Made by a program: the position numbers and the translations under genes. 39,217 bases of DNA. Origin: Bacteroidia bacterium (GTDB taxonomy: Bacteria; Bacteroidota; Bacteroidia; SpSt-205). Position 1 is the stretch's first letter. Each line of letters starts with the position of its first letter. The DNA is taken from contig JAOAHZ010000004.1 in NCBI GenBank assembly GCA_026414975.1, positions 240,891 to 280,107 on the forward strand, written 5' to 3'. This document shows positions 31-11,851 of this stretch, one piece after another. A model generated the notes under the pieces. The model saw only the letters and a list, made by a program, of their open reading frames with translations. It was not told the origin of the DNA and searched no databases.

Positions 31-3000
31 ATTTCAATCCCAAATTGGTGCGATTTTAAATCACTGCGGAGGTGGAAAACTTCCTCATGCGACACGCATT
101 TCAATCCCACATTGGTGCGATTTTCACTTTTCGCCCCGTCCAAACGAAGTATCGCCCACCCATTGATTTCAATCCCACATTGGTGCGATTTTCACATTGT
201 AACCTATCCAAAGCGCCGTAAGCGATGAAACATTTCAATCCCACATTGGTGCGATTTTCACGTAGATGATGTTATCTTTCTCACGAAATCATTTACAATT
301 TCAATCCCACATTGGTGCGATTTTCACCTGGTACGTTCGGGGCAAAGTCAAAGCTTTGATTACGATTTCAATCCCACATTGGTGCGATTTTCACCCATGC
401 CAACAAACAGAAATAAAAAGCCCCCTCCATTATTTCAATCCCACATTGGTGCGATTTTCACGTACCTCACCACCACCTTCTTCACTGCATCAGAGAGATT
501 TCAATCCCACATTGGTGCGATTTTCACTCTATTTTGTGACGCTCACTTTTCCTGCTGACTACTATTTCAATCCCACATTGGTGCGATTTTCACACCTCGC
601 GCTCTACTTCACCCGTGTAGTCACGCTCAATTTCAATCCCACATTGGTGCGATTTTCACTTCTTCATCTGATTTTCTTATCTCTGTTGAATCCGCATTTC
701 AATCCCACATTGGTGCGATTTTCACCACTTGCAAATGCGAAAAAAGTCGTATATTCGCAAAGATTTCAATCCCACATTGGTGCGATTTTCACCAGCTGAC
801 GAACGCAAGCGCAGATGATTTTGCAGCTTAATTTCAATCCCACATTGGTGCGATTTTCACAACTACGTGTCGCAGGGGACTATTTACTATCACGCCGATT
901 TCAATCCCACATTGGTGCGATTTTCACGCCTTACTTCCCTACGCCGCAGGATATAGATATAACGATTTCAATCCCACATTGGTGCGATTTTCACTTACCT
1001 TTCCCACCGCGGCGTGGGAGTGGCTGCGAGATTTCAATCCCACATTGGTGCGATTTTCACAGTTCCAGCAGCAGGCGGGACAGGCAGGCGGCGCTCATTT
1101 CAATCCCACATTGGTGCGATTTTCACAGTCAGCCCCACGGACCCTTCTCTCTGGACGAAATTTATTTCAATCCCACATTGGTGCGATTTTCACGACGCAG
1201 AGCTACAAAGAAAACAAGAAGAACTCAAGATTTCAATCCCACATTGGTGCGATTTTCACGATTTTGGAGCTTGAGCTGAAAGCCCTGCAAAAAACATTTC
1301 AATCCCACATTGGTGCGATTTTCACTCTATGGTCTCCGCCTCCTTACGGGGTAGATTTTCCGATTTCAATCCCACATTGGTGCGATTTTCACACAACTAA
1401 GAGCACCAAGAGCCGACGAATAGCCGTAATTTCAATCCCACATTGGTGCGATTTTCACATGCGCTCGGGCACGAGCGCGCACTCAGGCAACCCGAATTTC
1501 AATCCCACATTGGTGCGATTTTCACTCGCAGAGCGTGCGGTGGTATGCAGACAAAGCCGCCGATTTCAATCCCACATTGGTGCGATTTTCACGAAACCCA
1601 GCAGAGAGACTTTCACCCTTTTCAACGTATTTCAATCCCACATTGGTGCGATTTTCACTTATCGTCGTCCTTTTGCTGAATTCCCTATGCAAGATTTCAA
1701 TCCCACATTGGTGCGATTTTCACTGCGGCAATGCGGTAGCTTTCTTCGTGTGCTTGCCGCATTTCAATCCCACATTGGTGCGATTTTCACAAGGTTTATA
1801 TCATTTTCCACGAAATAGCTCACTTGATTTCAATCCCACATTGGTGCGATTTTCACGACGCAGAGCTGCAAAGAAGGCAAGAAGAACTCAAGATTTCAAT
1901 CCCACATTGGTGCGATTTTCACGATTAGTGGCTAAGAATACTATATGCGTAGGAGAAAATTTCAATCCCACATTGGTGCGATTTTCACCCCTCCAGATGG
2001 AGGGGGCGACTCGCAAGGTATGTAATTTCAATCCCACATTGGTGCGATTTTCACGGAGTACCGCTATTAAACAAGTGTCCCCCGCCCACAATTTCAATCC
2101 CACATTGGTGCGATTTTCACCCTTTGGAGGCATCAGCGTCCCTGATGGTAAAGCTGATTTCAATCCCACATTGGTGCGATTTTCACAGCTGCGCAAGCAA
2201 ATCCGCCAGAGCCTTTTTCCTCATTTCAATCCCACATTGGTGCGATTTTCACCATATACTTCTCCGCCACCTCGGGCGCCTCTGCCCGCATTTCAATCCC
2301 ACATTGGTGCGATTTTCACGAGCTGCGGGCGGCGGCAGCGAGCGAACGAGCGGCGGATTTCAATCCCACATTGGTGCGATTTTCACTGCCCGCCCAGTAG
2401 CTCAAAAACTCTGCTACCTCTGATTTCAATCCCACATTGGTGCGATTTTCACGGTGGGCAGTTTGCCGCACGGCTACTGCTTACCCCGATTTCAATCCCA
2501 CATTGGTGCGATTTTCACCCGCCCATTTTCCCGTATGCCCTCCATAGGTTACACAATTTCAATCCCACATTGGTGCGATTTTCACGAACGCTTCGTTCCA
2601 GTTGGGAAAGTACATAACCTCATTTCAATCCCACATTGGTGCGATTTTCACAACAGATATCTCGTATCTTTCCTCAATCAAAGAGAAAATTTCAATCCCA
2701 CATTGGTGCGATTTTCACTTCAGAGGATGCGGACCGCATTCGCATGCAGCTAGACGATTTCAATCCCACATTGGTGCGATTTTCACGCGTGCCACGCCAC
2801 ACGTCGCTCCGTCCCCTCCGCCGATTTCAATCCCACATTGGTGCGATTTTCACCCTCCAATGGCGGCAAAGTATAAGCGTTACGCCCTCTGATTTCAATC
2901 CCACATTGGTGCGATTTTCACTCTTCTACAAGCCTGAGAAAAATAATCAGAATAAAAATTTCAATCCCACATTGGTGCGATTTTCACGATGAAGTAAGGC

Positions 3001-3186
3001 TAAAAACAAGACCTTCAGAAGAAATTTCAATCCCACATTGGTGCGATTTTCACCGCTATTTACAGAAGAAGCAGCTACAAGCCTACACCGATTTCAATCC
3101 CACATTGGTGCGATTTTCACGCCCGCTGAACGAGGATGCACAGCTGCAGTCGCAAGATTTCAATCCCACATTGGTGCGATTTTCAC
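31..3186 (-). CRISPR. Type I-B CRISPR array, 48 repeats / 47 spacers
   Basis: Forty-eight 30-bp repeats occur, from 31-60 to 3157-3186. On the plus strand the unit starts ATTTCAATCCCACATTGG and ends GCGATTTTCAC. All are identical except the first (31-60), which has three C-to-A changes. Spacers are 35-38 bp, mostly 36-37. Read on the minus strand the repeat ends in ATTGAAAT, the form of the 8-nt 5' crRNA handle left by Cas6 in type I-B systems. I therefore infer leftward transcription, with the leader on the right (3187-3383) and the degenerate trailer repeat on the left. Bases 1-30 look like one more spacer or trailer sequence, so the array may continue beyond the window. The newest spacer should be 3121-3156. 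Spacers 1194-1229 and 1857-1892 are near-duplicates. Short ORFs read through the array are artefacts of the repeats. Confidence 0.99.
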
Positions 3187-3383
3187 CCCCTACTCGCCTC
3201 AGGCGAAAGAGACACAGTAGGAAGGCTCGGCAAATATACCGACTTTCCTCCAAATATCTCCAAACATATCCCCCCTTCAGCGAAAAGTATTCACCCCCCT
3301 TCTACACCCCTTGCCGTCGACCCTTAGTCATGTACCGGTTCAGCCTCATCGACGGCAGCCTAAAAAATACCTAACTTTCTCCT
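3187..3383 (-). promoter_or_regulatory. CRISPR leader and divergent cas2 upstream region
   Basis: This 197-bp non-coding stretch separates the leader-end repeat from the cas2 start. On the minus strand it holds two exact matches to the Bacteroidota -7 element TAnnTTTG: TATATTTG (3231-3238) and TATGTTTG (3261-3268). Either could start the pre-crRNA 40-75 nt before the first repeat. No well-spaced TTG -33 box is seen for either. A 9-bp perfect inverted repeat, TGCCGTCGA (3312-3320) and TCGACGGCA (3349-3357), is separated by 28 nt and could bind a protein. On the plus strand TAACTTTC (3372-3379), one base from the -7 consensus, lies 4 nt before the cas2 ATG. The role as leader is inferred from repeat polarity. 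Confidence 0.75.
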
Positions 3384-3650
3384 ATGTACATCGTCCTCAC
3401 CTATGATGTAGCTCAAGAACGAGTCGCTAAAGTGTGTCGCTACCTGCGCCGTTACCTTCATTGGGTGCAGAATAGTGTCTTTGAGGGTGAAATCACCGAA
3501 GGACGCTACGCCGAGCTCCTTGCCGGTCTGCGCAAAATCATCCGCTCCGACTATGACAGTATCTATATCTTTCACTGGCCAGCAGCCCATCTGGTCCAAA
3601 AGACCTCCTTGGGGCAGGAGCGAGGGCACACCGACTGGCTCATAGAGTAG
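3384..3650 (+). CDS. cas2: CRISPR-associated endonuclease Cas2
   Basis: This 88-residue protein has the usual Cas2 length and fold signature: a first beta strand ending in the conserved acidic residue (MYIVLTYDV, D8), then VQNSVFEGEIT and a C-terminal strand region ending DWLIE. Cas2 forms the dimer at the centre of the Cas1-Cas2 integrase, which inserts new spacers at the leader end of the array. The gene is on the plus strand, opposite to every other cas gene here. It sits between the leader and the 3' end of cas4, with which it converges. Its last codons and stop are the first copy of a short sequence repeated twice more downstream (see 3639-3789). The minus-strand ORF over the same bases is a shadow. 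Confidence 0.95.
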   Translation: MYIVLTYDVAQERVAKVCRYLRRYLHWVQNSVFEGEITEGRYAELLAGLRKIIRSDYDSIYIFHWPAAHLVQKTSLGQERGHTDWLIE

Positions 3651-3789
3651 CTTTAGCGTTCTTCATAGCGCAGGTCTGCCCCTGCTGGGGCGAGCTCATA
3701 GAGTAGCTTTAGCCGTCTCCTCGTGGGTGCTGGGGCCGCTCTGGCTGCATCTGCTGGGGCGAGCTCATAGAGTAGCTTTAGCCCCAGCA
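3639..3789. repeat. Triplicated short direct repeat with hairpin at cas2/cas4 junction
   Basis: The 19-bp string CTCATAGAGTAGCTTTAGC occurs at 3639-3657 (the cas2 stop region), 3695-3713 and 3764-3782. Copies two and three share 33 bp exactly (3682-3714 and 3751-3783), beginning CTGCTGGGGCGAGCTC. The third copy carries the TAA stop of cas4 on the minus strand. It is bracketed by a 9-bp inverted repeat, TGCTGGGGC (3752-3760) and GCCCCAGCA (3781-3789), whose right arm lies in the last cas4 codons. A smaller hairpin, GCCCC-TGCT-GGGGC, is at 3678-3691. The block could end transcription from both convergent genes, or be a scar of the event that flipped cas2. Neither has a T-run typical of intrinsic terminators. 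Confidence 0.8.
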
Positions 3790-4308
3790 CAGCTCTGCGT
3801 AAGCACATCGCTTACACAACCCCTTATATGGCACCACAGGGGGATGAGGCAACTCCTCCACCGATCGAATGCCCTCTATGACTTTCTCTACCTCTGCTTC
3901 TGCCTGAGGGGTCAGTTCGACTCGCTCTTTGCGACGCTCTCGGGGATAACGTATTTCACCCGCTATGGGAAACGCCTCACCTTCCGACCACCCGACATAT
4001 TTCTTGAGTAGATATAGATAGAATAAAAGCTGATAGCGTGCTACACGAGGCAAACGACGAGAGCGCTTTATCTCTACCAAGAGCCCCCCCTCTGTGTGGT
4101 CTAGCCGTACTAAACCCCCTAACCACTGCTCTTTACGAAGCGATCGTTCGTAAGCATCACGGTGTAATAGCCGACCTTCTTCCACCAGCCCATGTCCTCG
4201 CTCCATGGTAATATGCCGAGAAAAAAGCCACAGCTTCCGATGACACACTAAAAAGTAATGTACTTTCGTTCCTGTGATGCGCCAGGCTTGTATATCTGCG
4301 AATTCCAT
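3778..4308 (-). CDS. cas4: CRISPR-associated exonuclease Cas4
   Basis: A RecB-like nuclease of 176 residues that trims prespacers and helps define PAM and orientation before Cas1-Cas2 integration. Visible motifs are the first cysteine of the Fe-S cluster in the N-terminal region (C22 in LVCHRKLWLF), a PD-(D/E)XK core with D70 and E79-I-K81, the QxxxY motif (Q93-LLF-Y97), and the three C-terminal cluster cysteines C165, C168 and C174. All four cluster ligands are present, so it looks active. It starts 7 nt after the cas1 stop and is the last gene of the minus-strand cas operon. Its 3' end overlaps the repeat block shared with the convergent cas2 gene. The usual I-B order is cas4 before cas1; here it is reversed. 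Confidence 0.95.
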   Translation of the reverse strand: MEFADIQAWRITGTKVHYFLVCHRKLWLFSRHITMERGHGLVEEGRLLHRDAYERSLRKEQWLGGLVRLDHTEGGLLVEIKRSRRLPRVARYQLLFYLYLLKKYVGWSEGEAFPIAGEIRYPRERRKERVELTPQAEAEVEKVIEGIRSVEELPHPPVVPYKGLCKRCAYAELCWG

Positions 4309-4315
4309 ATGTTCT

Positions 4316-5311
4316 TTACCACCAGGCTCGAAAGGCTCTGTAAGGCTCTATGCCCAAAAGATGACGCATAAGCTTATAAGCCTCTAGTCGGAGAAGCTGC
4401 CGATATGACACCGAACGTTTGAGGCGACGATGCTGAACCGTGGTACTTAGCTGCTCCACAAAAGCCCGAACTACTTTCTTGCGGGCTTCCTCCTTGAGAA
4501 AAACCCCTGAGAGAGAGCCCACGTCTTCTAAGTCGGATTCGGAAAGCTCTCGCCGATTGAGAAGCCGAAAAACCAGCCTGTCCACTAAGAGGGGCTTGAA
4601 AGGTTCGCTCAGGTCTAAAGCCAGTGAAAATCGCCGAGCGCGAGGTTCATGGAGAAAACTTACCGCCGGATGAAGCGGCGTGTGATAAAGCTCGGACAAG
4701 ACATGCGTATAAAGGAGCATGTTGAGAAACGATACGAGAGCATTCGGTAGCGTCGTAGGAGGTCGGCGACGACGAACAAACGGCTCTTGTTCTCCCAGTA
4801 TAGCCTGCCATGCACTATAATAGGCCTGCCGTACCTTTCCTTCTTCACCCATGAGGTCTGAAATAGAAGCCGCCTGTTCTATAAGGCCCAGACGCTCCTC
4901 TATGAAAGCAAGCTGCTTAGAAAAGTCCTGCCCTCGGTGATGGTAGTAAAGAAGGTTTTTCCGTATTTGCTGAACCGCTCCCTGGACCAGCTCGCGCGCA
5001 ATGACAAGCCGCTTAGAGAGAACTTTCGCATGCTCTACTTGAGCGATAAACAGCTCTCCGCTAATCCGAGTGGGCCGAGGCAAAAAAGACCCCGCATAGG
5101 TACCATGATGATGAAACACATGAAGAGGAACTCCTTGCTTGCCTAAGAAGCGGAGAGTATGCGTATAAAGCCGCAGGGGCGCCATCACATAGATGTCGCT
5201 AATATCGGCAATCGGTAAGAATCGTTTCTCCCCCAAGGTATCTACAAAAAGGAGCGTATGCTGCTGGCGGCGCAGGGTTCCAGCCCGAAAAAGATATAAG
5301 GGTCGTCCCAT
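4316..5311 (-). CDS. cas1: CRISPR-associated integrase Cas1
   Basis: This 331-residue protein is a typical I-B Cas1. The N-terminal beta domain runs to about residue 85, followed by the helical catalytic domain. The metal-binding residues are visible: E157 in DLMGEEGKVRQAYY, H221 in LHPAVSFLHEP, and D233 with D244 in LALDLSEPFKPLLVDR. Cas1 catalyses the two transesterifications that join prespacer DNA to the leader-proximal repeat. Its ATG directly follows the TAG of cas3 with no gap, which implies coupled translation. The gene lies between cas3 and cas4 and away from its partner cas2, which is on the other strand about 670 bp further on. Nothing suggests inactivation. Confidence 0.97.
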   Translation of the reverse strand: MGRPLYLFRAGTLRRQQHTLLFVDTLGEKRFLPIADISDIYVMAPLRLYTHTLRFLGKQGVPLHVFHHHGTYAGSFLPRPTRISGELFIAQVEHAKVLSKRLVIARELVQGAVQQIRKNLLYYHHRGQDFSKQLAFIEERLGLIEQAASISDLMGEEGKVRQAYYSAWQAILGEQEPFVRRRRPPTTLPNALVSFLNMLLYTHVLSELYHTPLHPAVSFLHEPRARRFSLALDLSEPFKPLLVDRLVFRLLNRRELSESDLEDVGSLSGVFLKEEARKKVVRAFVEQLSTTVQHRRLKRSVSYRQLLRLEAYKLMRHLLGIEPYRAFRAWW

Positions 5312-7732
5312 CTACTCAATGATAAGAAAATCCTCAGACCTAGGCTGCTTAGGCCCCTCGCTGGGCTCAGCCTCAGGCAAACGAAGTGAAAGACCTACCT
5401 CTTCATCGTAAGGAGCCTCTACTTCATAGATATGATACGCCAGATTGTACTGCGCCCTGCCTTCTCTCTTGAGCTGCTGTATCACCCTGTAAGGCAAGGA
5501 GAGCCAGTACAATTGAGCCTCTAAATAGCACCCCTGGCTCACTTGCCTCTCGTAGTCCTCTTTCAGCGATCGAGGTAGAGCAACAACCCCATCAAAGAGG
5601 GCCTCATACCCCTCTATCACCTCTTGAGGAGCCGTCTCTAAGGGGAGAACCGTATGCTCCAAAAGCTCCTTGGCATCCCTATATCCCTCCTCAAGTCTCT
5701 CAAGAAGAGAATGGGCAAGAGTTCCGTAGCTCTTCTGAACGAGCTGAGGGAGCCTCTCCTCGCGAAGGCGATGCCCATGCTGGGCCCGTAGAATGTATCG
5801 CACTCGCCGAAGCACCCGACGCAAGCGATAGGGATAGTCCCATGAAACAGGGCGGCTCAAAACATACACGGGCTTCCAAGGGAAGCGGCGCTGCCGATTG
5901 ATCCGTCCAAATCGCTGAAGGAGAGCCTCCATCGGTGCCAGCTCCGTATATAACTCATCAAAACTCACATCCAGACTTACCTCCACCACCTGCGTCGCTA
6001 CGACCACGAGTCCTCCCTCGGATTTCACTGACTCCAACAGAGCCTTTTCCTTCTCCAAACGATGCTTAGCACAAAAACGGCTATGCAGCAGCAGAAGAGA
6101 CAACGACGAGCTTCCCCTCAGACGCTTGAGATTCTCGTAAATTCTCTGAGCAGTGTCAATGGTATTGACTGCGAGAAGAACCTTCCGTCCTTGCTGAGCT
6201 TTCTCTAAGGCTTCCCTAAGGATCACCTCATCTGTGATTCGCCCTCGCTTGAGAAAGAGCCTATGGCGAGAAAACTCGCAAAGGAAGCTCCTTGGGGGCC
6301 TCACTTTCTGTAAGGGAAGCATGCGAGAAAATGCATTCTCCATCCAGCGAGGCAGGGTCGCTGTCATGATACAGAGGTGGGCCCGATTTTCCGTGATGAG
6401 CTTCTCAAAGAGGGCCAGCATAAGGCCGACCCGACGAGGAGCATAAGCGTGGATTTCATCAGCGATAAGCAGCGCTCGGTAAGTGTGGGTACGGAGGCAT
6501 TCATGCCCTGGCAGTCCAAATACAACCTTGAGAAGTTGGTAGGGCGTCGTAAGAAAAATAGGCGGGTAGAAAAGACGGCTCATCTCATGTAGCGCATAAG
6601 CCTGAGCTTCGGCTCCTTCTTTTTCTCTAAGCTCATGATACAGAGCCATGAGGTTACGACTATGCCATAAGGCCAGGTATTCCCGTGGCACTCCGTATCG
6701 CTCTACAAATCGGTGCCACATAGCGTTGAGATTAGCTTGATAGGGAAGGATATAGTACAGGATTCTCTCAGGAGCATCCCGGGCTAAGCGACAGGCCCAG
6801 AGGAGAGCTGCTTCGGTTTTCCCACTACCTGTAGGGGCGATAAGAAGAAGGTGGTCGCCCGAAGCCTCGGCCTCGCTCTGATGAGGATGACGCTCAGTGG
6901 GGAAGCTGCGCTGGATCATTTCCCATGGTACAGAGGGGAGAGCTTTACCCCCAGCGCTGGCAAGCCGATCAGCTAAGAGTAGAAAGCCTCGGCTCTGAAA
7001 TAAAGCCAGTTTAGCTTTCTCCGAAGACCCTTTGAATTCTTTGTCGTCGGTGAATCTCTTCTCAAGTTGCCTGAGAAGGTGCTGAACGGCCTCGTACGCT
7101 TTTTCTGGCCACTTCTCTGTGCAGGTAGGGACCTCTGTCCAACCCCAGAAAGACTCACCCGTTTTTTGCTCCCACCATGACGGGAAAGTATGCTCGGTCC
7201 AGCGAGCAAGCTCTTCTATAGGGACAACTGAATTGCGTGGAGGATCAAGTTTAGCTCTGCGCAACTTTTCGGTAGCTTCAGGAGAGTCAAACCTTATCGG
7301 CTTGCATAACTTGTCAAAAAGCGGCTGACTGGCCGAGGACCAATCCTCCGGATGCCCAGGCGGATAACGCTCTAAGAGAATCTTAAGGTCCTTATGATGC
7401 GTTAGGATCGCTGCAGCAGCCCAAAAGGCTTTAGGGCTGTCTAAGGGGAAAAACCATCGTACAAACGCTACCGAGAGCAGTTCGTGGCGGTGTCCCCACC
7501 GCTGACCTTGAACCCGAATAAGCTGTCTCTGAAACGCCGGATGCACTTTGCCAAAGTCGTGGAGAAAGGCAGCGGTAGCGAGAGCCTGAAGCAAACAAGG
7601 AGAATTCTCAGAGCCGCATCGCCCCCAAAATTCCCAAAAACGATCCCACACCGCACGAGTGTGGGACTCTAAGCTTTCCGGCGGGTCTGATTTGGCTAAA
7701 AAAGGTAGGCTCGTTGAGAGGTTAACTTTCAT
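5312..7732 (-). CDS. cas3: CRISPR-associated helicase-nuclease Cas3
   Basis: The Cas3 effector degrades target DNA after Cascade recognition. With the ATG at 7732 it is 806 residues. The N-terminal HD nuclease domain shows H24, H58-D59 in FLHDFGK, H81/H83 and H112-H113. The superfamily 2 helicase follows: Walker A APTGSGKT (K305), the DEAD-type box as DEIH (D425), the TAT motif in CIMTATLP, and motif VI QRFGRINRQRR. All catalytic motifs are intact. I chose 7732 because its ATG overlaps the cas5 TGA as ATGA. An upstream TTG at 7750 would add six residues and overlap cas5 by 22 bp. The N-terminal HD plus helicase fusion is the common type I form. Confidence 0.97.
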   Translation of the reverse strand: MKVNLSTSLPFLAKSDPPESLESHTRAVWDRFWEFWGRCGSENSPCLLQALATAAFLHDFGKVHPAFQRQLIRVQGQRWGHRHELLSVAFVRWFFPLDSPKAFWAAAAILTHHKDLKILLERYPPGHPEDWSSASQPLFDKLCKPIRFDSPEATEKLRRAKLDPPRNSVVPIEELARWTEHTFPSWWEQKTGESFWGWTEVPTCTEKWPEKAYEAVQHLLRQLEKRFTDDKEFKGSSEKAKLALFQSRGFLLLADRLASAGGKALPSVPWEMIQRSFPTERHPHQSEAEASGDHLLLIAPTGSGKTEAALLWACRLARDAPERILYYILPYQANLNAMWHRFVERYGVPREYLALWHSRNLMALYHELREKEGAEAQAYALHEMSRLFYPPIFLTTPYQLLKVVFGLPGHECLRTHTYRALLIADEIHAYAPRRVGLMLALFEKLITENRAHLCIMTATLPRWMENAFSRMLPLQKVRPPRSFLCEFSRHRLFLKRGRITDEVILREALEKAQQGRKVLLAVNTIDTAQRIYENLKRLRGSSSLSLLLLHSRFCAKHRLEKEKALLESVKSEGGLVVVATQVVEVSLDVSFDELYTELAPMEALLQRFGRINRQRRFPWKPVYVLSRPVSWDYPYRLRRVLRRVRYILRAQHGHRLREERLPQLVQKSYGTLAHSLLERLEEGYRDAKELLEHTVLPLETAPQEVIEGYEALFDGVVALPRSLKEDYERQVSQGCYLEAQLYWLSLPYRVIQQLKREGRAQYNLAYHIYEVEAPYDEEVGLSLRLPEAEPSEGPKQPRSEDFLIIE

Positions 7733-8475
7733 GAGGTCATCTTCACCCAACTCAAAGGATCAAGACGCCAGAGATGAATGAGATAAGACCGTCCTCCTCT
7801 GGAAGATACTACATAGCCATCGGGAGGGAGTATGCGCAAGGGTTGACTCCGGGTGACTTGGAGGAAATGTGCCCAAAGGACAGGACTGCGCTCCCCGATA
7901 GGCATATACACAGGCATACGCTCAGCTCTGTAATACCCAGCGAAGTAGGGTCGCCAGCTTAGAGGATACAGACTGGGTCCCCCCCACAACGGCCCGCTCC
8001 CCGTATAAGCCTCAACTGAATGAGCTTCTACCTCTTCAATACACTCTAAGCTCACCATCTCCTGCGAGCGTCCCAGCGTGAGCCAATAGGCAGGCCTGAA
8101 GAAGGCCATGCGCCAACTCTCCAGATCAGGCGCTTGCACATACAGCTCCAAGGTAAAAGCTGTGCGCAGCTCCCGCCGCACGACATTGCTTTTTATCTCT
8201 TCAATAGGGCTGCCGCGTCCCCCTGTCTCGCGGGCCTTCAGGTACCATAAGCGTTCCGTATCGTAGCTCGATGCAGCCTCAGTATGAAAAAAGTAACCTA
8301 TCCGTAAGTCCTTCAACGGGCATTCATCGCCCCAAGCTGCACATAGAAGCCCATACAAGGTGGAAAGTGGAGGCAAGGGATAGCTAAGCTGCCGACCTAC
8401 TGTAATGAAGGGATAACGAAAGGACGCTACTGGTCCTGAAAGGCGCACATATAAGAGGGGTAAAGAGCCTGCCAT
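7729..8475 (-). CDS. cas5: Cascade subunit Cas5 (Cas5t/Cas5b type)
   Basis: This 248-residue RAMP protein has the Cas5 N-terminal signature LYVRLSGPVASFRYP followed by SYPLPPLSTLYGLL, as in Cas5 of Tneap-type I-B systems. In Cascade, Cas5 caps the 5' handle of the crRNA and contacts the large subunit. The gene starts 12 nt after the cas7 stop and its TGA overlaps the cas3 ATG, which supports one polycistronic message. The C-terminal half (RMPVYMPIGERSPVLWAHF onwards) is less conserved. Family assignment rests on the N-terminal motif and operon position. Confidence 0.93.
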   Translation of the reverse strand: MAGSLPLLYVRLSGPVASFRYPFITVGRQLSYPLPPLSTLYGLLCAAWGDECPLKDLRIGYFFHTEAASSYDTERLWYLKARETGGRGSPIEEIKSNVVRRELRTAFTLELYVQAPDLESWRMAFFRPAYWLTLGRSQEMVSLECIEEVEAHSVEAYTGSGPLWGGPSLYPLSWRPYFAGYYRAERMPVYMPIGERSPVLWAHFLQVTRSQPLRILPPDGYVVSSRGGRSYLIHLWRLDPLSWVKMTS

Positions 8476-8487
8476 AGGAGGTGAGAC

Positions 8488-9531
8488 CTACTTCTGGAGG
8501 CTCTCCTCGGCTTTCCACCAATCAGGATGCGCCTCTAAGTCCTCTATGAGCTTTTGAAAAACTTTTCGCGGGTGATCCCAAACGACGCGGCTAATCTTCG
8601 TTAGGAGGGCATTCCTGATAGAAGAGGCATCTTCTTTGGCATCCCTTGGATAGCCCTCCGTCCAACCTATGTATAACGGAGAGAGCATATAGTCTTGCCA
8701 TACCCTGTACAATTCCTCTAAGGCTGGAACCGCTATGGTAGCATTTCCTTGGGGGTCAGCATGAATGACATGCCAGAAAGGATTGACGCCGCCCTGAAAG
8801 ACCGCCATAACAACAATCACTGGCGTCACATCCGAAGCATGAAGAGTTTGTTTAGCTCCCCCTTCCACAACTGGAAAAGCCTCTAAAACCGCCTTTATGC
8901 GTTTCCATCGGACCTCATCAGGCAAGACGTAAGCTCTTCCACCACCTACTATTTCAGCACCAACTTTCTTTGCTTGTTCAGCGCGAACATCGTCTAAGTT
9001 TTGAAAGCCCGTGCGCGATACCACCGTAAATACCCCCACGCGTCCTAAGTCTAACCCAAAAAGACCCCGAAGAGGCCCCGTGTAAAACTCGTGTTCATGA
9101 GGCACGGGATTGCCCTCATGTCGGCTCATAGTTCCATAGTCTGTAACAATAGAAGATGTAAGACTCACGAGGGTACCCATCCGCAAAGGAGACACTCGAG
9201 TCAAAGTATTGGCCTTTTCACTACCTCTACTACTCGGCGCTCGCATGTACCCGAACACGTCATCGTCATCGTAGTCAATCGGATTGGCCTCTGTATAAGC
9301 GATTTTCTCTTCTCGGAAGATAGGTGAGGGCTTCCAGTCATTTCGCTCTGCAAGCGTTTGCCGCAGCCAATAACGCCAAGCTTGAGCTGAAACATAAGGA
9401 TAGACTCGATTTCCTTCACGCAGTTTCTTGACGGTTACTTTGTTCTCGGCCATATCCCCTGAGTCTATGCCAGCGTTATTGAGTGCAGAAGCTGGCGCAT
9501 AAATCACTTGAATACCTGATAGAAATGCCAT
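8488..9531 (-). CDS. cas7: Cascade backbone Cas7 (Cst2/DevR family)
   Basis: This 347-residue protein opens with FLSGIQVIYAPASALNNAG and then has YPYVSAQAWRYWLRQTL. That is the Cst2/DevR pattern: an N-terminal strand, the ALNN element, then a VS-Q-RYxLR helix. Multiple copies would form the helical filament that holds the crRNA spacer. It sits between cas8 (3-nt gap) and cas5 (12-nt gap). A glycine-rich stretch, KKVGAEIVGGGRAYVLPDEV, lies near the middle. The Cst2-type backbone and the Cst1-type cas8 next to it assign the system to the Tneap branch of type I-B. Confidence 0.93.
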   Translation of the reverse strand: MAFLSGIQVIYAPASALNNAGIDSGDMAENKVTVKKLREGNRVYPYVSAQAWRYWLRQTLAERNDWKPSPIFREEKIAYTEANPIDYDDDDVFGYMRAPSSRGSEKANTLTRVSPLRMGTLVSLTSSIVTDYGTMSRHEGNPVPHEHEFYTGPLRGLFGLDLGRVGVFTVVSRTGFQNLDDVRAEQAKKVGAEIVGGGRAYVLPDEVRWKRIKAVLEAFPVVEGGAKQTLHASDVTPVIVVMAVFQGGVNPFWHVIHADPQGNATIAVPALEELYRVWQDYMLSPLYIGWTEGYPRDAKEDASSIRNALLTKISRVVWDHPRKVFQKLIEDLEAHPDWWKAEESLQK

Positions 9532-9534
9532 AGG

Positions 9535-11079
9535 CTATAGGATTTCGGTTTCGTCTTCAGTGTGATTAGAGAGCTGCTCCAGAGCCGCCTTATCTTTCTC
9601 AAAGTAGCCCTGCTTATACAGCTCCTCTATGAGAGCTATCTGGAGAAGGTCTCGGGCGAGTTTCCAGTTGCGTTCGGGATACCCTTCCGCTGTCTCAAAG
9701 AGGGTGAGGTATTCATCCAGCGAGAAAAGGAGCTTCCCCTCACTGGATAAAGCTTTCCGCAAGAGCCGAATGAGAAGCACTCGCCAAACGTCATACCGGC
9801 TCACTTGAGACCCTCCAAGCCCTAAAAGTTTTTTGTGGGCTCTCGGCTCGCGTCCAGTTGTGACAAGGCTTGCTAAATCAGCCGCAAGCCGTTTGATGAT
9901 ATCTATCTGCTCCTGGGTCATACTCGGAAGAAATACTTCTACAAAAAGCTCCACGACTTCCCAGATAGGCTTGTAATCTAAATGAGGCAAGGCAAGACTC
10001 CCTCCATAAGCTACCCTTCGGTACCCCCGAACCAGATTAAGGCTGCGGTAAGCATACCCCTTGAAAAAGAAGCGGATAAATAGGGGCGCTGCCTCAGGAA
10101 GATCAGGCAGGACTTCATAAATAAGATTGCGGCTCTGATGCGCAGAAATACTTTTAGAACTGGTTTGCTTCTCGGGCGGTAGGGATTCTCTCACTTGCTC
10201 AGGAACAGTAAGGCCACCCCGTTTCTCCTCCACCACCCAGAAGCTGTGGAGAAAAGCTCGCCAGGCTGGGTAGTATCGCTCAGCACGGACCCGACGCAAG
10301 AAAGTCTGAACCGCGCTTACGTACCAGTAAATCTCCGCATCGGGGTCCTGACCGCTATTGGAGAAATAAAAAGCCTGGATAGGAAAGCCCTCATCTCCCT
10401 CCTCTGAGACGGACAAAATCTCCTCCAAGACCTCTCCAAAGCGAGAGAGGGGATTTTTTATCTCCAGCTTCCCACCCTCGCGAGCCATCTTGATAAGAAG
10501 ACTCACATACTTATGGTACAGCGCCTCAGCTGCCCGTAAGAGGAGCTGTGGCTCTAAAGAAGCAGGCACAAGAAGCCGACCACTTATCAAAGGCGCTACA
10601 TAAATGAATCCCAAAATACATCCTAATGCCCATTGCGATACAGGGAGGTAACCGCTACCATTGAGGGTGAAATTGAGACTGCGGCGCTCAGGAAGCAGAG
10701 GAAACCGGTCACGACCGATGAGAATGACAGCTGGCTCGTCTTCGTAAAAAGCACACTTCACCTCAGGTAAAGGACGCGGCTCCGAGCTAGCCCCTTTGTA
10801 GTTTTTACCCTCTTTTGCTAAACCGAATATTTCGCTAATCTTTACCTCGCGGCCTCCCCCACTCTTCCAACTGGGATTATTGAAACCATTTTGCGTGAAA
10901 GCCACACTGAGAAGCCTATCCACAAATCCTCCTTTATAGTCATCCTCTATTTTCGTCAGCCAAGCTCTCCAGTCCTCCTCTGTAATAAGCTTTGGGTCTC
11001 TCTTGTTTGAATGAATAAGCAAGTAGGCTAATCCAGCGTCTAAAAGAGGTTCCCCCAACCAACGAAGCGGAGTACCCAT
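9535..11079 (-). CDS. cas8: Cascade large subunit Cas8 (Cst1-like)
   Basis: The 514-residue product is the probable Cascade large subunit, which recognises the PAM and recruits Cas3. The N-terminus (LRWLGEPLLDAGLAYLL) matches the 'G-P-DAG' opening of Cst1/Cas8a1 proteins. Its place between cas6 and a Cst2-type cas7 fits. Cst1 proteins usually carry a CxxC...CxxC zinc motif. Here only two cysteines occur in the whole protein, in EVKCAFYED and LGCILGF, so the zinc site seems lost. I chose the ATG at 11079; a TTG at 11088 would add three residues. It lies 25 nt after the cas6 stop. Large subunits diverge fast, so the family call is less certain than for the other Cas proteins. Confidence 0.85.
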   Translation of the reverse strand: MGTPLRWLGEPLLDAGLAYLLIHSNKRDPKLITEEDWRAWLTKIEDDYKGGFVDRLLSVAFTQNGFNNPSWKSGGGREVKISEIFGLAKEGKNYKGASSEPRPLPEVKCAFYEDEPAVILIGRDRFPLLPERRSLNFTLNGSGYLPVSQWALGCILGFIYVAPLISGRLLVPASLEPQLLLRAAEALYHKYVSLLIKMAREGGKLEIKNPLSRFGEVLEEILSVSEEGDEGFPIQAFYFSNSGQDPDAEIYWYVSAVQTFLRRVRAERYYPAWRAFLHSFWVVEEKRGGLTVPEQVRESLPPEKQTSSKSISAHQSRNLIYEVLPDLPEAAPLFIRFFFKGYAYRSLNLVRGYRRVAYGGSLALPHLDYKPIWEVVELFVEVFLPSMTQEQIDIIKRLAADLASLVTTGREPRAHKKLLGLGGSQVSRYDVWRVLLIRLLRKALSSEGKLLFSLDEYLTLFETAEGYPERNWKLARDLLQIALIEELYKQGYFEKDKAALEQLSNHTEDETEIL

Positions 11080-11104
11080 TCCCAGCAAATTTAGGTAAAG
11101 GGCT

Positions 11105-11851
11105 CTATCTATCTACAATCTCTATCATGCCAAAGCCTTGGCCGCTCCGCTCACCGAAGCCCGCTTGGTATCCGACTCGAAAAAGGCTTAGGGGACCTTC
11201 ATATAAAAATAGCCCTTCGTAGGCTCGGACTTGGGTGCCATGGACGTGTACTAAGCGCGAGCGCACCCGAAGGGGTAAAAAGACAACCTCATCCGATACA
11301 GAGATAGAGAGGCCCAGCACTTGCGCTTTTCGGCGCAGATTTTCCCCGAGGATGCGACTGAAAGCGCTGTCTTGCGGGGTGAGAAAGACCTTACGCCCCT
11401 TAGACCAACTTTCCTGCATCTCTACGGTAGAAATGGTGATGGGAGATAAAGTGCGCACACGAACAGGGCTTCGGTCGGGGAGAGGCTCAGGAAGCACTTC
11501 AACGGTTTCTACCTGAAGGGGCATGCGTCCTAAGGTTACCTTGGGGTCTCTCCATATGCCCTGCGTGAATGCCTCTATAAGCGCCGAAACAGGAGAGCTA
11601 ACCTGCCAGTAAAGGGGTGGCGTCAGACGGAGACCTGCTGTCTCCGCTTGGAGCGCTTTGGCTTGGAGCCAGGAGAACGTATACAGCTTATACCGATGGC
11701 CCTCAGCTACCCATCCCCGCGCATGAAGCTGCATCCCTAAGGCGAGATTAGCTTGATTGAGCCAGCGATAAAAGAGCCCCATGAGCAGTTCTGGATAACG
11801 CCATGGCAAAAAAAGAGGGTGCTTAGCCGAAAAACCTATCTGAAGCCGCAT
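11105..11851 (-). CDS. cas6: crRNA-processing endoribonuclease Cas6
   Basis: This 248-residue RAMP endonuclease cuts the repeat in pre-crRNA to leave the ATTGAAAT handle. The C-terminus carries the glycine-rich loop of Cas6 (GYQAGFGERSGQGFGMIEI, about residues 226-244). The N-terminal ferredoxin fold contains a histidine in the LHARGW segment (about 43-48), a candidate catalytic residue. It is the first gene of the minus-strand cas operon, so its upstream region at 11852-12060 should hold the operon promoter. Length and C-terminal motif are typical for I-B. Confidence 0.94.
   Translation of the reverse strand: MRLQIGFSAKHPLFLPWRYPELLMGLFYRWLNQANLALGMQLHARGWVAEGHRYKLYTFSWLQAKALQAETAGLRLTPPLYWQVSSPVSALIEAFTQGIWRDPKVTLGRMPLQVETVEVLPEPLPDRSPVRVRTLSPITISTVEMQESWSKGRKVFLTPQDSAFSRILGENLRRKAQVLGLSISVSDEVVFLPLRVRSRLVHVHGTQVRAYEGLFLYEGPLSLFRVGYQAGFGERSGQGFGMIEIVDR

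What the first reader, a model, noticed from the sequence alone, without database searches (positions are those of the whole stretch)
1194..1892. Two near-identical spacers that differ like diverged coding sequences
Spacers 1194-1229 and 1857-1892 are both 36 nt and match at 33 positions. In the plus-strand frame they read DAELQRKQEELK and DAELQRRQEELK. The three changes give one synonymous codon (CTA/CTG) and one conservative K-to-R (AAA/AGG). That is the pattern of two homologous genes under purifying selection, not of spacer mutation or array duplication; the flanking spacers are unrelated. The copy nearer the leader (1857) should be the later one, ten acquisitions after the first. I infer that the lineage sampled exactly the same protospacer in two diverged viruses, through a strong PAM or hotspot, or by primed acquisition after escape.
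Basis: partly seen in the sequence, partly recalled or inferred. Interest (0 to 1): 0.72.

Follow-up and report, generated by a model that had tools for sequence, protein, structure and literature searches.

The report
CRISPR spacers resampled from diverged viruses
A hot-spring-type bacterium's very long CRISPR array has stored the same short piece of two slightly different related viruses, one of about a dozen such pairs in the array, which is what repeated infection by co-existing virus variants should leave behind and needs no special mechanism.

Summary
Spacers 1194-1229 and 1857-1892 (numbers 140 and 150 of a type I-B array with 171 exact repeats on this contig) match at 33 of 36 positions. 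The best score among shuffled spacers is 13.5; this pair scores 28.5. It is one of about a dozen homologous spacer pairs. Mutation after array duplication is very unlikely: 237 repeats are letter-perfect and the flanking spacers are unrelated. The coding signature is weak for this pair alone (P about 0.10) but strong over all pairs (P = 2e-6). Two contigs in the same genome bin carry apparently viral DNA with 27 spacer matches in 5.55 kb. Their differences from spacers fall mainly at third codon positions (34 of 54), and 20 of 27 sites abut GG (a 5'-CCN PAM). Exact and diverged matches alternate along the array, so diverged lineages were sampled close together. Hotspots are not needed: random sampling of CCN sites predicts about 5.6 same-site pairs, and 5 are seen. 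Priming is plausible but unproven. The protospacer of this particular pair was not found, so that step is inferred. This is an ordinary but well-documented instance of known CRISPR-virus co-evolution.

The parts
1194..1229 (-). Spacer 140 (older copy), reads DAELQRKQEELK on the plus strand; crRNA is expected from the minus strand
1857..1892 (-). Spacer 150 (newer copy), DAELQRRQEELK on the plus strand; 33/36 identical to spacer 140
98..3186 (-). CRISPR array portion in the window; repeat (plus strand) ATTTCAATCCCACATTGGTGCGATTTTCAC; the array continues left to C34:232478 (171 exact repeats), with further same-repeat pieces on contigs C8 (56) and C9 (10)
3187..3383 (-). Leader, conserved in part with the array leader of relative G007
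3384..3650 (+). cas2
3778..4308 (-). cas4
4316..5311 (-). cas1
5312..7750 (-). cas3 (HD and helicase)
7729..8475 (-). cas5b
8488..9531 (-). cas7b (DevR/Csa2 family)
9535..11088 (-). cas8b (I-B large subunit)
11105..11851 (-). cas6
262..297 (-). Spacer 126, exact match to contig C9:1727-1762, flanked there by TGG
328..364 (-). Spacer 127, diverged homologue (29/37) of a C9 site
462..497 (-). Spacer 129, diverged homologue (28/36) of a C9 site; 7 of 8 differences at third codon positions; PAM CGG
1127..1163 (-). Spacer 139, overlaps a homologue of spacer 103 on the other strand
2121..2156 (-). Spacer 154, homologue of C8 spacer 40 on the other strand (29/32)
2719..2756 (-). Spacer 163, homologue of spacer 87 (22/26)
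2988..3023 (-). Spacer 167, diverged homologue (28/36) of a C10 site

Best explanation
The two spacers were acquired independently, at different times, from the same PAM-bordered coding site in two diverged but homologous members of one virus group that infects this bacterium repeatedly. The type I-B adaptation machinery (Cas1, Cas2, Cas4) cuts protospacers next to a 5'-CCN PAM (NGG in plus-strand orientation). The PAM fixes one border, and the 36-37 nt length preference usually fixes the other. With more than 230 spacers drawn largely from one virus pool, hitting a homologous site twice is expected by chance. The three differences are pre-existing virus divergence under purifying selection. 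Shown: the pair, the letter-perfect repeats, about a dozen other homologous pairs with coding-type differences, and apparently viral DNA in the same bin carrying exact and diverged protospacers with CCN PAMs. Inferred: that this particular pair comes from such a virus gene, and that existing spacers promoted the later acquisitions (priming).
For: Pair score 28.5 against a shuffle maximum of 13.5, with about a dozen further homologous pairs. Pooled coding signature over 11 non-identical pairs P = 2.3e-6; without this pair 3.6e-6. All 237 counted repeats are exact (7110 bases), so three mutations in one 36-nt spacer have P about 6e-7 at the 95% upper bound on the rate. Contigs C9 and C10 hold 27 spacer matches in 5.55 kb. 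34 of 54 spacer-virus differences lie at third codon positions (P = 8e-6); 29 changed codons are synonymous and 15 are not. GG follows 20 of 27 sites against about 5% background. Exact and diverged matches sit next to each other in array order (spacer 126 exact, 127 at 29/37, 129 at 28/36; 112, 113 and 118 exact, 116 at 31/36), so diverged lineages were sampled close together. Expected same-site pairs under random PAM-site sampling 5.6; observed 5 (13/16, 51/108, 50/61, 53/109, 140/150).
Against: No protospacer for this pair was found in any collection or in the bin. The sequence is a heptad-like coiled coil, so two paralogous repeats inside one virus gene could give the same pair. On its own the pair's coding signature is not significant (P about 0.10).
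Confidence: 0.82

Rival explanations
1. Both spacers come from one virus, from two paralogous copies of a coiled-coil repeat within one gene (for example a tail or scaffold protein).
For: DAELQRKQEELK looks like a heptad coiled coil, and such genes often hold internal repeats (inference from sequence).
Against: The other homologous pairs (WNSYKAAL, VEGMVVEAIER, RRFVDAIIS and others) do not look like repeats, and the apparently viral contigs show no internal repeats resembling the spacers.
Confidence: 0.1
2. Primed or interference-driven acquisition after escape: spacer 140 still bound a diverged virus weakly and drove the cell to take up spacer 150. This adds to the main explanation rather than replacing it, so its confidence is not exclusive of it.
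For: The mismatches lie at positions 16, 17 and 25 from the expected PAM side, outside the seed. Spacers against C9/C10 cluster in array order (15 close pairs against 7.1 expected, P = 0.0001). Interference-driven acquisition is documented in type I systems (PMC5059440).
Against: Priming yields new spacers near the priming site, not specifically at it. Chance already explains the number of same-site pairs. Clustering also follows from an epidemic.
Confidence: 0.4
3. Array duplication followed by mutation or recombination.
For: Identical spacer pairs exist in the array (13/16, 51/108).
Against: Flanking spacers are unrelated and repeats carry no substitutions. The identical spacers 51/108 match apparently viral DNA exactly.
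Confidence: 0.02
4. Strong acquisition hotspot at this site.
For: Five sites were sampled twice with the same borders.
Against: The number expected from random sampling of GG/CC-flanked sites is 5.6.
Confidence: 0.05

Closest known systems
Hot-spring Synechococcus CRISPR and virome co-evolution (Germ Warfare in a Microbial Mat, PMC2612747)
   Same: Spacer sites in natural viruses vary by silent or conservative changes, some at only 70% nucleotide identity; one array held two identical adjacent spacers.
   Different: There the variants were seen on the virus side. Here both variants are stored in one array, and diverged and exact sites are mapped on DNA in the host's own bin.
Type I-B CRISPR-Cas with CCN PAM (e.g. 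Clostridium, listed in PMC8482600)
   Same: I-B effector genes and a 5'-CCN PAM.
   Different: A very long array (171 exact repeats on this contig, plus same-repeat pieces on C8 and C9) in a Bacteroidia relative; the target virus group is not found in the databases searched.
Interference-driven or primed adaptation in type I systems (PMC5059440)
   Same: Clusters of consecutive spacers against one invader.
   Different: Mechanism not tested here.

Membership tests
Type I-B CRISPR-Cas | cas8b with cas7b, cas5b, cas3 and cas6 | tested here: met
   PADLOC and Pfam hits
Type I-B CRISPR-Cas | cas1, cas2, cas4 adaptation genes beside the array | tested here: met
Type I-B CRISPR-Cas | 5' PAM consistent with known I-B PAMs (CCN) | tested here: met
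   GG after 20 of 27 sites in plus orientation, i.e. CCN in crRNA orientation; CCN listed for I-B
Same-site resampling of diverged viruses | Spacer differences behave like coding divergence | tested here: met
   Pooled P = 2.3e-6; this pair alone P = 0.10
Same-site resampling of diverged viruses | Homologous protospacers found with same borders and PAM | tested here: inconclusive
   Found for sister spacers in C9 and C10, not for this pair
Same-site resampling of diverged viruses | Not explained by duplication of the array | tested here: met
   Exact repeats, unrelated flanks
Primed adaptation | New spacers clustered around the priming protospacer with strand bias | tested here: inconclusive
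   Clustering in array order P = 0.0001; position and strand bias need the complete virus

The most novel reading that the evidence does not exclude
The array is an ordered record of at least two co-existing, diverged lineages of one unknown virus group, with later acquisitions steered by imperfect older spacers (priming), so that same-site pairs mark when an older spacer had stopped protecting.
Probability: 0.3. Interest if true: 0.55.

Novelty: new member of a known kind. Interest (0 to 1): 0.35.

Why it matters
One array with more than 230 spacers counting its two side contigs, plus matching DNA in the same bin, gives a rare quantitative case: same-site resampling, PAM, virus divergence and acquisition order can be read together. 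It shows that near-identical spacers need not mean hotspots or array duplication, because chance sampling of PAM sites in a diverse virus pool predicts them. It also shows how spacer pairs can be used to measure selection on genes of viruses that have never been isolated.

Tried and rejected
Back-translated DAELQR[KR]QEELK patterns in IMG/VR and GTDB genomes: no hit, and none with a relaxed pattern plus PAM in IMG/VR. The spacers by blastn in phage and plasmid records: only short chance matches. The window array by blastn in phages: no match. Pattern search of 11 genus genomes with up to 3 mismatches: only the array itself. Back-translated patterns of other spacer pairs in IMG/VR: one hit (L107, WNSYKAAL) with no other spacer match and no GG beside it, treated as chance or remote. 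C9 and C10 proteins against IMG/VR (two proteins), phages, Pfam and PHROGs: no close relative; a C9 protein in 13 genomes of the order: only the own contig. Array duplication plus mutation rejected. Hotspot rejected as unnecessary.

Full report
What is there. The window begins inside a very long CRISPR array that runs left to position 232478 of the same contig (171 exact repeats). Two further contigs of the same bin, C8 and C9, carry 56 and 10 repeats of the same sequence. The adjacent genes are a complete type I-B set: cas6, cas8b, cas7b, cas5b, cas3, cas1 and cas4 on the minus strand, cas2 on the plus strand. The leader lies at the right end next to cas2. It is partly conserved with the array leader of relative G007, whose contig has the length of Bacteroidia bacterium KatS3mg025, and a degenerate repeat marks the far left end. 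Spacers towards the right are therefore newer. That the organism lives in hot springs is an inference from this relative (KatS3mg genomes are, from memory, hot-spring metagenome assemblies).

Spacers 140 (1194-1229) and 150 (1857-1892) are 36 nt long, match at 33 positions, and read DAELQRKQEELK and DAELQRRQEELK. Among 232 spacers compared in all pairs on both strands, this pair scores 28.5; five shuffled spacer sets never exceeded 13.5. The neighbours are unrelated.

It is not alone. The same comparison gives exact same-strand pairs (13/16, 51/108), same-border pairs with differences (50/61, 53/109, 140/150), shifted pairs (C8 22/51, 41/C8 10, 87/163) and opposite-strand pairs (31/35, 32/69, 154/C8 40), all above the shuffle maximum. 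A further identical copy, 116/119, borders an assembly gap and is not counted. For the non-identical pairs I asked how often random changes of the same number would look as protein-conserving in the best open frame. Over 11 pairs the combined P is 2.3e-6, and 3.6e-6 without 140/150. These frames were chosen as the best of six, in data and null alike.

Direct evidence from apparently viral DNA. Contig C10 (3008 bp) and the part of contig C9 after its last repeat (663-3205) are dense with protospacers: 27 spacer matches in 5.55 kb, many of them exact. Their proteins have no close relatives in the libraries searched; the C9 ATPase has a weak match to a terminase large-subunit family. That they are viral is inferred from the protospacers and gene content. 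In plus-strand orientation 20 of 27 sites are followed by GG, about 5% being expected per position, which means a 5'-CCN PAM in crRNA orientation, one of the PAMs listed for type I-B (PMC8482600). Where a spacer and the contig differ inside a predicted gene, 34 of 54 differences are at third codon positions (P = 8e-6), and 29 of 44 changed codons are synonymous.

Co-existing lineages rather than steady drift. Spacer 126 matches C9 exactly, whereas 127 and 129 match at 29/37 and 28/36. Spacers 112, 113 and 118 match C10 exactly, and 116 between them matches at 31/36. Exact and diverged matches alternate along the array, so diverged lineages were sampled close together in acquisition order.

Why the same site twice. 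C9 and C10 hold 557 GG or CC dinucleotides. If all 232 spacers came from a pool with the same protospacer density, that pool would have about 4800 sites and 5.6 same-site pairs would be expected; five are seen. A hotspot is not needed. This estimate assumes uniform sampling and one pool. Spacers against C9 and C10 are clustered in array order (15 close pairs against 7.1 expected, P = 0.0001), which fits interference-driven or primed acquisition as shown in other type I systems (PMC5059440), but also an outbreak. The three mismatches lie at positions 16, 17 and 25 from the expected PAM side, outside the seed, so spacer 140 could have primed against the second virus; this is not shown.

Alternatives. 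Duplication plus mutation fails because 7110 repeat bases carry no substitution and the flanks differ. This assumes that repeats are not homogenised faster than spacers. Two paralogous coiled-coil repeats in a single virus gene remain possible for this pair, since its protospacer was not found in IMG/VR, GTDB genomes, phages, plasmids or the bin. The absence of the virus group from these collections makes that negative uninformative.

Comparison with the literature. Silent and conservative variation at spacer sites was described for hot-spring Synechococcus viruses (PMC2612747). The present case is a well-resolved new instance: both variants are stored in one array, and exact and diverged sites are mapped on DNA in the host's own bin. 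It is not a new kind of system.

Noticed in passing
G000 contigs C9 (L046:663-3205) and C10 (L059:1-3008): Two apparently viral contigs in the same bin with 27 spacer matches, proteins without close relatives in the libraries searched, and one AAA-type ATPase weakly like a terminase.
   Followed up: partly
L046:630-680: Contig C9 passes directly from the last CRISPR repeat into viral DNA that overlaps the site of spacer 93; most likely an assembly join through a spacer-protospacer match, but an integration was not excluded.
   Followed up: partly
L046:1649-1684: The site of the identical spacers 51 and 108 is exact but followed by TAG instead of NGG, a possible PAM-escape variant or a slipped cut.
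   Followed up: no
window 31-60 and the gap before the window start: A degenerate repeat (ATTTCAATCCCAAATTGGTGCGATTTTAAA) lies next to a run of N inside the array, and spacers 116 and 119 are identical next to another N run; scaffolding may be imperfect here.
   Followed up: no
window 3620-3783: Three copies of a 39-nt repeat containing GAGCTCATAGAGTAGCTTTAGC lie between cas2 and cas4.
   Followed up: no
L009 spacers 89-93 (C34:238410-238743): Five consecutive spacers all match the 2.5 kb of apparently viral DNA on C9, a burst of acquisitions.
   Followed up: partly
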